DNA of 45,166 nt, from NCBI GenBank assembly GCA_949289215.1, contig CASENC010000047.1, forward strand, positions 1 through 45,166. Direction: 5' to 3'. The notes beneath the pieces were generated by a model. That model searched no databases, was not told where the DNA came from, and saw only the letters and a list, made by a program, of their open reading frames with translations. Source of the DNA: an uncultured Bacteroidales bacterium. Its GTDB lineage: Bacteria; Bacteroidota; Bacteroidia; Bacteroidales; Muribaculaceae. How positions within the stretch are numbered: position 1 is the first letter of the stretch; each line of letters starts with the position of its first letter. Positions 249 to 3,093 of this stretch are shown one piece after another. A program made the position numbers and the translations under genes.

Positions 249-938
249 TTACAACCAGTTTACCCTTAGCAAATCTTCAAACTTTTGCTTGCCGCGGCTG
301 CCGCCTTCACGGTTCCACCACGGGCTGGCGGGGTGCGAGACACACGCAATGGCAACACCTGCATACTCCGTTCCTTTGCTTTGGCAAAATTCATTGAATT
401 TGTCGTATACAAGCCTGCTCAAGAACACTATCACATCGGGCTGCAACCTGTCGATTATGCCGGCCAGTGCCGTTCCTGCGACTTCGCAATCGATGCTTTG
501 CGGCATAAATCCCTTGTTCTCGCCATCATTGAGTGCGGGACGCAAGAAATAGTTGTAGAAAGCTGCTTCGAAAAGTCCTTTCCCGTGTTGTTCTATCCCG
601 GCAGCGTCCAATACACGGTCCATGATATTGAACACCTTGTTGAACGTAGAGTAATCAATCCAATTGCTTACCGCAGTCTTCTTTTCTGCCGGGATAAGCT
701 TGTCGGTGTCGGCAGTGTACCACTTGCCGGCATCCTTGAAGACGCTCACAGTTTCGGGATAATCATCGAAGTAATTGCTTTCGCCCACAAGCAGCAATTT
801 CTTGTGCTTTCCGTCCTCACGCCAATAATTGCCGCCTACAGCCGGTATCAGTTCCGGGAAACGCTCGAAAATTCCTCCCTTTACGAGTTCTTTCCCCATT
901 CCATAGTAAAATTCGGGTTGGTTAGAATTGTATTCCAT
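249..938 (-). CDS. Uracil-DNA-glycosylase-superfamily-like protein (tentative)
   Basis: A 229-residue soluble protein without signal peptide or membrane segment. Near the N-terminus is KKLLLVGESNYFDD (about residues 46-59), which resembles the GExPG-type motif of uracil-DNA glycosylase-like folds. PDVIVFLSR lies in the middle (about 168-176), and a late CVSHPASPWWN (about 199-209) resembles the C-terminal HPS motif. The order and spacing fit a UDG-like alpha/beta fold, but the catalytic motifs are not canonical, so activity as a glycosylase is inference. It stands alone, separated from the next minus-strand gene by a hairpin at 982-1016. No clear promoter is seen upstream. An alternative is a hypothetical protein with an unrelated Rossmann-like fold. 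Confidence 0.6.
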   Translation of the reverse strand: MEYNSNQPEFYYGMGKELVKGGIFERFPELIPAVGGNYWREDGKHKKLLLVGESNYFDDYPETVSVFKDAGKWYTADTDKLIPAEKKTAVSNWIDYSTFNKVFNIMDRVLDAAGIEQHGKGLFEAAFYNYFLRPALNDGENKGFMPQSIDCEVAGTALAGIIDRLQPDVIVFLSRLVYDKFNEFCQSKGTEYAGVAIACVSHPASPWWNREGGSRGKQKFEDLLRVNWL

Positions 939-1680: not shown

Positions 1681-3093
1681 TCATGACAAAACTGCCTTGG
1701 CCACTTCACGGTCTATTTGCAGAAATGTGTCACAAATGCTGTCGTCGGCATATTCCTCAAATAATTCATCGTTATATATCACCGACACCTTGCCAAGGCT
1801 GCCGATGCAACTGTGCAATTCCGACAATGCAGCCTCGGCCCGAGCCTTGCGCCTTTCGCCCTCGAATGTGAAAGGCATCGCCGCCACACATTTTACTCGT
1901 GATGTAATATCACTCACCTTGCGTACTACAAGCGGAGCCAGCCGCGAACCCGTCTTGCCGCCAAGGCATACGATTACTGCCACCTCGTCGATATCGCCGG
2001 CAAGCAATCGGGTTATCGCTGCCTCGTCATCGGCATGATTGCCGGTCAACAATACCTTTTCACATTCGGCCTTGTGTTTTCCCAGTTGTTCACTGTCGGT
2101 ATCAAGCATAACAAACCTGTACCTGCCATCGGACGGCAAAATTTCGCACAATGAGTCGGCCACGTTGCAGCCGCCATTCCCTATTGCAATAACAAGCCTC
2201 GAAATTTCATTTGAATGTAATTTGCTCCAAGCCTTGATAAGACTTACAACAGCCTGATACTGTTCCTTATAATCGGTTGTTCCATACGTTTTTTCAACTT
2301 CAGCCTCATACTCCTCAATAATTGTAGCCGAAGGGAAATGAAACGACGTTAGCGAAGGCACATGCACCACCCCGATGGTTTTATCTCGGGTGACAAATGC
2401 CGTAACCGAATAACATTCGCCGTTCCCGACCCATTTTGGGTAAAGGTTACCGATATACAAATAATCACTGCTTCGCGACACAAGGGCATCGCCGCCAATA
2501 TGAGCATCGCCCCAGACACGGGCTTCACCATTTATGCAGGCTTCACCATATATAAAAGCATCGCCAAACACTTCGGCCAAGTCCGAAACCACTGCATTGT
2601 CCGTAATCACTGCCGCACCATGCACGTGCGCATACATACCGCAAACCCGGGCTTTCCCCGATACTCTGGCGCGGCCATACACCATTGCGCCGCCTTCCAC
2701 TTGTGCGTCACCCGAAATACACGCCTTCTCATACACCTGTGGATTGCCCGATACCCGGGCGCGGTCCTTCACTTCGGCATCGTCTCTTACCATCGCATTA
2801 CCGCTCACAATGGCATTGTCGCAAACCATCGCCTTGCCCGAAATAAACGCATCGCCACGCACACAAGCATTGTCGCACACCAGTGCATCATCTATCACCT
2901 CGGCGTTGCCCATCACCATGGCATCACCGGCCACCCATGCATTGCCATCGTGGCTTAGATTGCCGTCATGCTCTATGTACCCACCGCGCATACCACATAT
3001 CATGTGGCTGAAAGGCCTCACACATTCTATCCTGTACAATCGTCTCCCATCTACCGTGATGCTGTCATCGGTCAAAACATATTTCCTACTCAT
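1681..3093 (-). CDS. Left-handed beta-helix protein fused to an FtsZ-like GTPase domain
   Basis: A 470-residue protein with two clear parts. Residues 1-50 (with RRLYRI and GGYIEHDGNLS) are the cap seen in phage- and Bacteroidetes-type hexapeptide proteins. Residues 51-207 hold about 26 hexads of the pattern [ND]AxVxG, predicting 8-9 coils of left-handed beta-helix. After a linker (208-297), residues 298-470 follow the FtsZ N-terminal domain in order: AIGNGGCN (303-310) for the glycine-rich T1 loop, LDTDSEQL (330-337) for INTDxQAL, GGKTGSR (378-384) in place of the tubulin signature GGGTGTG, MPFTFEGERR (406-415) for KPFSFEG, VIYND (438-442), and a final F457-xxx-D461. The protein ends there, so helix H7, the catalytic T7 loop and the C-terminal tubulin domain are absent. 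The FtsZ resemblance is seen in the sequence; nucleotide binding and any filament role are inference. No signal peptide, so it is probably cytosolic. Confidence 0.8.
   Translation of the reverse strand: MSRKYVLTDDSITVDGRRLYRIECVRPFSHMICGMRGGYIEHDGNLSHDGNAWVAGDAMVMGNAEVIDDALVCDNACVRGDAFISGKAMVCDNAIVSGNAMVRDDAEVKDRARVSGNPQVYEKACISGDAQVEGGAMVYGRARVSGKARVCGMYAHVHGAAVITDNAVVSDLAEVFGDAFIYGEACINGEARVWGDAHIGGDALVSRSSDYLYIGNLYPKWVGNGECYSVTAFVTRDKTIGVVHVPSLTSFHFPSATIIEEYEAEVEKTYGTTDYKEQYQAVVSLIKAWSKLHSNEISRLVIAIGNGGCNVADSLCEILPSDGRYRFVMLDTDSEQLGKHKAECEKVLLTGNHADDEAAITRLLAGDIDEVAVIVCLGGKTGSRLAPLVVRKVSDITSRVKCVAAMPFTFEGERRKARAEAALSELHSCIGSLGKVSVIYNDELFEEYADDSICDTFLQIDREVAKAVLS

What the first reader, a model, noticed from the sequence alone, without database searches (positions are those of the whole stretch)
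1681..3093. Beta-helix scaffold fused to an FtsZ-like GTPase domain with an altered signature loop
The N-terminal half is about 26 hexads of left-handed beta-helix. The C-terminal 170 residues retain the order of FtsZ N-domain motifs (T1 loop, INTD-like, tubulin signature, PFSFEG-like, VxPND-like, F-x3-D), but GGGTGTG is GGKTGSR and the protein ends before H7/T7 and the C-terminal domain. A GTPase-like domain lacking the activation loop on a rigid beta-helix would be expected not to polymerise like FtsZ, and might act as a nucleotide-gated scaffold or FtsZ-binding regulator. The fusion is seen in the sequence; the role is inference. I know of no described protein with this architecture.
Basis: partly seen in the sequence, partly recalled or inferred. 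Interest (0 to 1): 0.85.

Follow-up and report, generated by a model that had tools for sequence, protein, structure and literature searches.

The report
Half-FtsZ fused to a beta-helix rod
A gut bacterium carries a protein in which a rod-like scaffold of a type common in phages is joined to half of the cell-division protein FtsZ; the half-FtsZ belongs to an apparently undescribed family of cut-down FtsZ copies, whose relatives, along with a second family that keeps the other half, often sit among RNA-repair and conflict genes.

Summary
The signature GGGTGTG reads GGKTGSR.

The fusion is local. In a sister genome the two parts are neighbouring genes; a one-nucleotide length difference and a lost ATG set the states apart. 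It is fused in 1 of 22 genomes with the half-FtsZ. All five solenoid copies examined in the genus are followed by the half-FtsZ gene or a remnant.

The larger find is the family. 'A' (GTP-site half) is in 22 of 297 sampled Muribaculaceae. A second short FtsZ family, 'B' (at least 25 of 297), has lost the GTP loops but mostly keeps the T7 aspartates and the C-terminal domain. They share 8 genomes (1.9 expected, p=1e-4). RtcB lies near A in 9 of 22 and near B in 12 of 25. Neither was found outside the family, in limited samples.

Likely role: a non-polymerising FtsZ mimic (brake or decoy). This is inferred.

The parts
1681..3093 (-). Whole ORF, 470 aa: beta-solenoid + cap + half-FtsZ
2470..2973 (-). 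Residues 41-208: left-handed beta-helix (YdcK type) hexapeptide repeats, acidic (pI 4.6)
   Evidence: PF18836 and PDB 2f9c; phrog_7964 1.1e-86 and phrog_5070 5e-78, best stretch residues 1-152; charge
2206..2469 (-). Residues 209-296: C-terminal cap of the solenoid protein, shared with stand-alone solenoid genes and phage families
   Evidence: phrog_5353 matched to residue 290 and phrog_20532 over 189-289; alignment with three L001 copies
2190..2220 (-). Fusion junction: one nucleotide shorter than the sister locus, and the ATG of the stand-alone half-FtsZ gene is AGG here
1684..2205 (-). Residues 297-470: half-FtsZ domain 'A' (FtsZ N-domain up to the start of H7)
   Evidence: PF00091, TIGR00065, solved FtsZ; hhalign of the set against FtsZ E 9.4e-41 (the set held L159 and L160 too)
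2164..2190 (-). T1 loop, residues 302-310 (IAIGNGGCN)
1942..1965 (-). Altered tubulin signature, residues 377-384 (LGGKTGSR)
249..938 (-). 229-aa protein of unknown family, near the half-FtsZ gene in 3 of 3 genomes of the genus that carry A
   Evidence: cluster 17: window, L034, L035; no Pfam match

Best explanation
Shown: the C-terminal domain is a truncated FtsZ paralogue (family A) that keeps the nucleotide-binding half without H7/T7, the C-terminal domain or the core of the T3 loop. It is fused here to the phage-type beta-solenoid gene that precedes it in this genus. Its relatives are stand-alone genes in Muribaculaceae, many of them in RNA-repair/conflict islands, where a second truncated FtsZ (family B) mostly keeps the T7 aspartates and the C-terminal domain but no GTP loops. 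Inferred: A is a non-polymerising FtsZ mimic. It docks through its remaining N-domain 'top' face onto the T7 face of an FtsZ-fold partner (B where present; in the window genome, where no B was seen, the cell's own FtsZ) and acts as a dominant-negative end cap or brake on Z-ring assembly, used while the cell deals with RNA damage or an invader. In the window protein the beta-helix, a fold whose relatives commonly form trimers (recalled), would hold several such heads on a rigid rod. Each part of the mechanism after 'non-polymerising' is inference.
For: Domain identity. Truncation at H7, missing T3 core (11 of 11), last signature Gly replaced (21 of 21). Selection: half-FtsZ part constrained between window and G001, dN/dS 0.21 at dS 0.78. 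20 clade rows apart from FtsZ with support 100/99 (the tool warned of long branches). Complementary loss in B: hhalign to FtsZ along its length E 9.5e-29; T7 first Asp kept in 19 of 24 and second in 23 of 24, with the GTP loops gone, which fits a T7 face that still contacts an FtsZ-type nucleotide site. A and B share 8 genomes against 1.9 expected, p 1.2e-4; in 7 of the 8 they lie on one contig within about 12 kb. Context: RtcB near A in 9 of 22 and near B in 12 of 25; WYL 12 of 22 and 17 of 25; exoribonuclease 7 and 9; MoxR 3 and 6 (names). Precedent for cell-division domains, FtsZ/tubulin rarely, as effectors of conflict systems: PMC7159879 (section 17 read).
Against: The missing T3 core and replaced signature glycine leave GTP binding and an FtsZ-like top face unsure. 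No B was seen in the window genome, G001 or G007 (one weak 46-residue match in G001, E 0.002, not followed up; G000 and G007 are about 85% and 83% complete). 14 of 22 A genomes and 17 of 25 B genomes lack the other. The T7 Asn is kept in only 4 of 24 B. In 8 of 13 type-1 loci A is directly followed by a metallophosphoesterase gene, overlapping it by 1-4 nt, which points to RNA ends rather than division. In the window's genus none of the nine island genes counted lies in the stretch fetched around A (3 of 3). The co-occurrence may reflect shared islands or ancestry. No structure or binding data.
Confidence: 0.33

Rival explanations
1. Decoy or sensor: A (and B) are inactive FtsZ pieces kept as bait for phage proteins that attack FtsZ. 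Binding of the invader's protein would protect native FtsZ or trigger a linked defence.
For: Many loci are conflict-type islands with WYL, bpMoxR, VWA-like (VWA_CoxE below its cut-off) and PDDEXK_4 genes, one of the last also hit by PADLOC PDC-S26; cell-division domains are known effectors there and decoys were proposed (PMC7159879, section 17 and passages); a defence protein that senses a phage protein bound to FtsZ is published (PMC13423816, abstract and outline read); catalytic features lost in A and B; sporadic distribution.
Against: A pure decoy should keep the surface that the inhibitor binds; B keeping mainly the T7 aspartates fits a functional contact better. No defence gene was recognised beside the window gene by reading its translations, though the contig starts 1.7 kb downstream.
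Confidence: 0.25
2. RNA-repair cofactor: A is a nucleotide-binding partner of the calcineurin-type phosphoesterase encoded right after it, part of an RNA end-healing pathway with RtcB; the FtsZ fold was reused and has no link to division.
For: A is directly followed by the phosphoesterase gene in 8 of 13 type-1 loci, with 1-4 nt overlap in 8 of 8 (L190 and L193 are the same 5,952 bases in two genomes). RtcB, a PrfH-type release factor, exoribonuclease and HAD_SAK_2 occur in the same islands.
Against: In types 2 and 3, the window included, A is not next to this gene; it does not explain B.
Confidence: 0.22
3. Degenerate remnant: in the window lineage the fusion is a by-product of a decaying gene pair and has no function of its own.
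For: Of the four other solenoid copies examined in the genus, one is followed by a separate A and three by remnants; tandem copies in G001.
Against: Long open frame; dN/dS 0.21 for the half-FtsZ part and 0.35 for the solenoid part, although most of that may predate the fusion; the lost start codon makes the fused reading the only good one.
Confidence: 0.15
4. Assembly or base-calling error: the real sequence has two genes and one base is missing.
For: One assembly only, 52 contigs; a one-nucleotide length difference.
Against: No usable start codon for a separate half-FtsZ gene remains (ATG is AGG), and the junction differs from G001 by several substitutions too.
Confidence: 0.05

Closest known systems
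FtsZ (PF00091 + PF12327)
   Same: N-domain by profile; T1, FEG, T6 Asn, F-x3-D
   Different: Altered signature, T3 core missing, no H7/T7, no C-terminal domain; TIGR00065 cut-off far from met
YdcK family / phage hexapeptide proteins (PF18836, phrog_7964, phrog_5070)
   Same: N-terminal 290 residues, solenoid and cap
   Different: Half-FtsZ attached; NF040481 (YdcK equivalog) cut-off not met
FtsZl1 (Makarova and Koonin 2010, PMC2875224, section 4 read)
   Same: FtsZ-like N-domain without the usual C-terminal half
   Different: FtsZl1 has GGGTG(S/T)G, no recognisable T6-H7, and a coiled coil plus helical domain; here the T6 Asn is kept, the signature is altered, and the partner is a beta-helix or nothing
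Cell-division effectors of MoxR-vWA conflict systems (Kaur et al. 2020, PMC7159879, section 17 and passages read)
   Same: FtsZ-superfamily piece in islands, some with MoxR and VWA-like genes
   Different: No complementary halves, RtcB islands or beta-helix fusion in the passages read; no MoxR/VWA seen by the window gene

Membership tests
FtsZ | Tubulin/FtsZ GTPase domain by profile | tested here: met
   PF00091 44.0 bits, cut-off 33
FtsZ | Signature GGGTG(S/T)G | tested here: not met
   GGKTGSR; last Gly replaced in 21 of 21 clade rows
FtsZ | T3 loop | tested here: not met
   Core missing in 11 of 11 clade members aligned; type-2 rows keep a shortened segment
FtsZ | H7, T7 NxDxxD and C-terminal domain | tested here: not met
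   Frame ends at the start of H7
FtsZ | NCBI equivalog cut-off TIGR00065 | tested here: not met
   50.1 bits (whole protein), 54.7 (fragment), cut-off 295.2
FtsZ | GTP binding and polymerisation | not testable with these tools
   needs protein
FtsZ | Predicted fold of the domain | not tested
   structure prediction switched off
YdcK-type beta-solenoid | PF18836 repeat | tested here: met
   37.2 bits, cut-off 30
YdcK-type beta-solenoid | YdcK equivalog NF040481 | tested here: not met
   74.1 bits against 350
FtsZl1 | GGGTG(S/T)G plus coiled coil and helical C-terminal domain | tested here: not met
   altered signature, protein ends at H7
MoxR-vWA conflict system | MoxR and vWA genes beside the gene | tested here: inconclusive
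   None seen in the window translations, no profile run on every gene, contig edge 1.7 kb away; the island clusters were not in the window. bpMoxR above cut-off and VWA_CoxE below cut-off in L138
MoxR-vWA conflict system | beta-propeller on the vWA protein | tested here: inconclusive
   L138:10726-12060 hits only VWA models, below their cut-offs

The most novel reading that the evidence does not exclude
Muribaculaceae carry a split FtsZ: A keeps the nucleotide site and no catalytic loop, B keeps the catalytic T7 aspartates and no nucleotide site. Together they make one hetero-interface that cannot grow into a filament, a closed GTPase pair derived from a cytoskeletal polymer and wired to RNA repair. 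The window protein is a version in which the A half is mounted on a phage-type beta-helix and redirected to the cell's own FtsZ.
Probability: 0.2. Interest if true: 0.92.

Novelty: new variant of a known kind. Interest (0 to 1): 0.72.

Why it matters
FtsZ is treated as a whole-protein polymer. Here one bacterial family keeps two cut-down FtsZ lineages with complementary losses, often inside RNA-repair and conflict islands, and one lineage has put the nucleotide half on a beta-helix rod. If they act on FtsZ, they link RNA-damage repair or anti-phage conflict to a division brake; if they pair with each other, they show how a filament-forming GTPase can become a closed switch. Either is directly testable with small proteins.

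Tried and rejected
Rejected: that the beta-helix/FtsZ fusion is a conserved architecture (1 of 22 A genomes, open frames). That the half-FtsZ is a known phage or plasmid gene: with P0001, 69 phage and 15 plasmid records matched but none over 80% of the protein, and the rows listed (20 of 69; 15 of 15) stop at residue 293 or before; no match for L038's A in phages or plasmids, none for L040's A in plasmids (not tried in phages); no relative in four viral-contig scans with A or P0001 queries. B was found on one IMG/VR contig (L195) and on one short unannotated 'Bacteriophage sp.' scaffold (L204) that reads as the bacterial island; no plasmid match; two more B scans found nothing. A and B outside the family: order sample of 247 genomes, four of them of the family (B: 2 matches at E<=1e-24, both full FtsZ with frames of 511 and 463 aa; A: only the window genome); phylum sample of 118 (B: none, and the tool notes that no known B genome was in the sample; A: only the window genome). 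Cut-offs were strict to keep FtsZ out, so distant members could be missed. Searches at looser cut-offs were swamped by FtsZ. L159/L160 (G168/G271) are short FtsZ-like proteins that group with FtsZ and were not counted as A. The phage neighbourhood of a solenoid relative gave only hypothetical proteins.

Dropped before counts: L158 (B in two frames) from the B alignments; L155 and L137 also from A6; L187 (stop inside A) and L193 (same as L190) from the tree; G424 (B fragment) and G348 (divergent B-like frame, noticed only because its A locus was fetched) from the 25 B genomes; with both added the overlap is 10 genomes, p 2e-6. The B count is from a capped list sorted by E-value, so it is a lower bound. 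G442 and G501 hold the same 5,952 bases, so the 22 A genomes are at most 21 independent sequences.

Full report
What is there. The finding's coordinates hold one open frame on the minus strand, 470 aa. Residues 1-290 are a YdcK-type left-handed beta-helix with a C-terminal cap: PF18836 37.2 bits, PDB 2f9c E 1.3e-13, and two phage protein families of unknown function at 1.1e-86 and 5e-78. Relatives of this part occur in 69 of 50,697 phage records and 15 of 72,556 plasmid records. Residues 297-470 are an FtsZ N-domain: PF00091 44 bits with cut-off 33, TIGR00065 E 1e-14, solved FtsZ E 5.5e-9. It stops where H7 begins. The genome also has a full FtsZ of 441 aa.

How the fusion arose. In a sister genome (G001, L034) the same two parts are neighbouring genes: the solenoid gene ends in TGA and the half-FtsZ starts at an ATG after 7 further nt. 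In the window the junction is one nucleotide shorter and that ATG is AGG, so the two frames are one and no usable start is left for a separate gene. All five solenoid copies with this cap that were examined in the genus (window, three in G001, one in G007) are followed by the half-FtsZ gene or a remnant of its start, in frame in two of five. The pairing is therefore old in the genus, and the fused or split state turns on single nucleotides. The half-FtsZ part is constrained between window and G001 (dN/dS 0.21, dS 0.78; solenoid part 0.35). Most of that constraint may predate the fusion.

The family of the half-FtsZ ('A'). In 297 sampled Muribaculaceae genomes, 22 carry A at E<=1e-32; two of these (G442, G501) share the same 5,952 bases. 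The window's is the only long frame; the others are 174-254 aa. In a maximum-likelihood tree the 20 clade rows separate from FtsZ with 100/99 support, while two further short proteins from another family (L159, L160) fall with FtsZ; the tool warned that long branches meet and the root is at the midpoint. Clade rows keep T1, the E and G of FEG and the T6 asparagine (21 of 21 for these two), replace the last glycine of GGGTGTG (21 of 21), and lack the core of T3 (11 of 11 aligned; type-2 rows keep a shortened segment). By tree and context there are three types: type 1 (about 173 aa, 13 genomes, L187 and L193 placed by context or identity), type 2 (about 227 aa, 6 genomes) and type 3 (the window's genus, 3 genomes).

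The other half ('B'). A gene near A in L037 matches the FtsZ C-terminal domain (PF12327 23.5 bits, under the cut-off of 27; solved FtsZ E 2.2e-7 over residues 101-237). Its relative beside A in L038 has no Pfam match, but the family profile finds solved FtsZ at 1.2e-13 and aligns with FtsZ along its length (hhalign E 9.5e-29): the glycine loops and the T5-H6 region are gone, the T7 loop and C-terminal domain remain. The first T7 aspartate is kept in 19 of 24, the second in 23 of 24, the asparagine in 4 of 24. B occurs in at least 25 of 297 genomes (capped list). A and B share 8 genomes against 1.9 expected, Fisher p 1.2e-4, and in 7 of these 8 they lie on one contig within about 12 kb. This does not correct for shared ancestry. 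Fourteen A genomes, the window's among them, and 17 B genomes lack the other. Neither was found outside Muribaculaceae in an order sample of 247 and a phylum sample of 118 genomes, at strict cut-offs and, for B in the phylum sample, without a positive control.

Where they live. Counted in the stretches fetched, several cut by contig ends: near A (22 genomes) RtcB in 9, WYL 12, exoribonuclease 7, metallophosphoesterase 11, metallo-beta-lactamase type 6, PrfH-type release factor 3, MoxR 3; near B (25 loci) RtcB in 12, WYL 17, exoribonuclease 9, metallophosphoesterase 8, MoxR 6, HAD_SAK group 5, release factor 4, VWA-like 3. At least one of the repair-type or WYL genes is present in 17 of 22 and 18 of 25. 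One member of each group was named by Pfam: RtcB, WYL, metallo-beta-lactamase with RMMBL, phosphoesterase, PDDEXK_4, bpMoxR, HAD_SAK_2, RF-1 and RNase_T above cut-off; VWA_CoxE and DUF6557 below. In 8 of 13 type-1 loci A is directly followed by the calcineurin-type phosphoesterase, and the genes overlap by 1-4 nt in 8 of 8. In 4 of 6 type-2 loci B follows A within 2 kb on the same strand. The window's genus is different: none of these nine groups lies in the stretches around A (3 of 3); A sits by the solenoid gene and near a 229-aa protein of unknown family; RtcB is elsewhere in the window genome and no B was seen, though the genome is about 85% complete and the contig starts 1.7 kb downstream of the gene.

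How it may work. The truncations make FtsZ-type polymerisation implausible. Two lineages with complementary losses, and T7 aspartates kept in a protein without a nucleotide site, suggest that a longitudinal FtsZ-type contact is still used. I therefore favour a non-polymerising FtsZ mimic that caps or brakes an FtsZ-fold partner, with the beta-helix as a rigid and probably oligomeric carrier in the window protein. Against this stand the missing T3 core, the tight A-phosphoesterase linkage in type 1, and the missing B in this genus. The decoy reading has precedent: cell-division domains as effectors in MoxR-vWA systems, the MinD and FtsK ones predicted inactive and FtsZ/tubulin rare (PMC7159879, section 17 and passages read), and a defence protein that senses a phage protein bound to FtsZ (PMC13423816, abstract and outline read). 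RtcB2-PrfH is a known ribosome-repair pair (PMC9223846, abstract and outline read).

Compared with print. FtsZl1 (PMC2875224, section 4 and passages read) also lacks the usual C-terminal half but differs in signature, T6 and attached domains. Literature searches for FtsZ with RtcB, WYL, PrfH, RNA repair or beta-helix terms showed no paper on these families in their listings. The library lacks most subscription papers, and the 2016 RNA-repair survey was not held. The statement that beta-helix proteins commonly trimerise, the residue roles of T3 and T7 and the FtsZ nomenclature are recalled.

Limits. The fused frame is known from one assembly.

Noticed in passing
L138, L140, L146, L149, L195 and other B loci: Muribaculaceae islands of RtcB, WYL, exoribonuclease, bpMoxR and short FtsZ-like genes; an integrase-like gene in L195 (by eye) and tRNA genes in 2 of 7 loci scanned (L138, L188) hint at mobility.
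   Followed up: partly
L037:5119-6278, L040:6713-7827, L139:3-1003, L183, L188, L190, L192, L193: Half-FtsZ gene overlapping the start of a calcineurin-type phosphoesterase gene by 1-4 nt.
   Followed up: partly
L190 and L193: The same 5,952 bases, half-FtsZ and phosphoesterase included, in genomes G442 and G501 of two genera: recent transfer or contamination of an assembly.
   Followed up: no
L159:7995-8666 and L160:7936-8607: Short FtsZ-like proteins (223 aa) with a near-normal signature in two genomes of another family; they group with FtsZ and look like an independent truncation.
   Followed up: partly
L039:4872-5810 and L140:8257-9144: Related genes, FtsK/SpoIIIE-type by Pfam in L039, next to half-FtsZ (L039) or close to B (L140).
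   Followed up: no
window 249-938 (-), L034:2816-3505, L035:3470-4201: 229-243 aa protein of unknown family near A in this genus; by eye it recalls uracil-DNA-glycosylase-like proteins, not confirmed by Pfam.
   Followed up: partly
L034:4795-7737: Three tandem solenoid genes, two followed by remnants of the half-FtsZ start: a duplicating array.
   Followed up: partly
L204 (MT837932.1): Unannotated human faecal scaffold filed as 'Bacteriophage sp.' that carries the RtcB-WYL-exonuclease-B cluster; the label is probably wrong.
   Followed up: yes
G000:C30 (L041:3171-3965): A second solenoid protein of this type in the same genome, without half-FtsZ.
   Followed up: no
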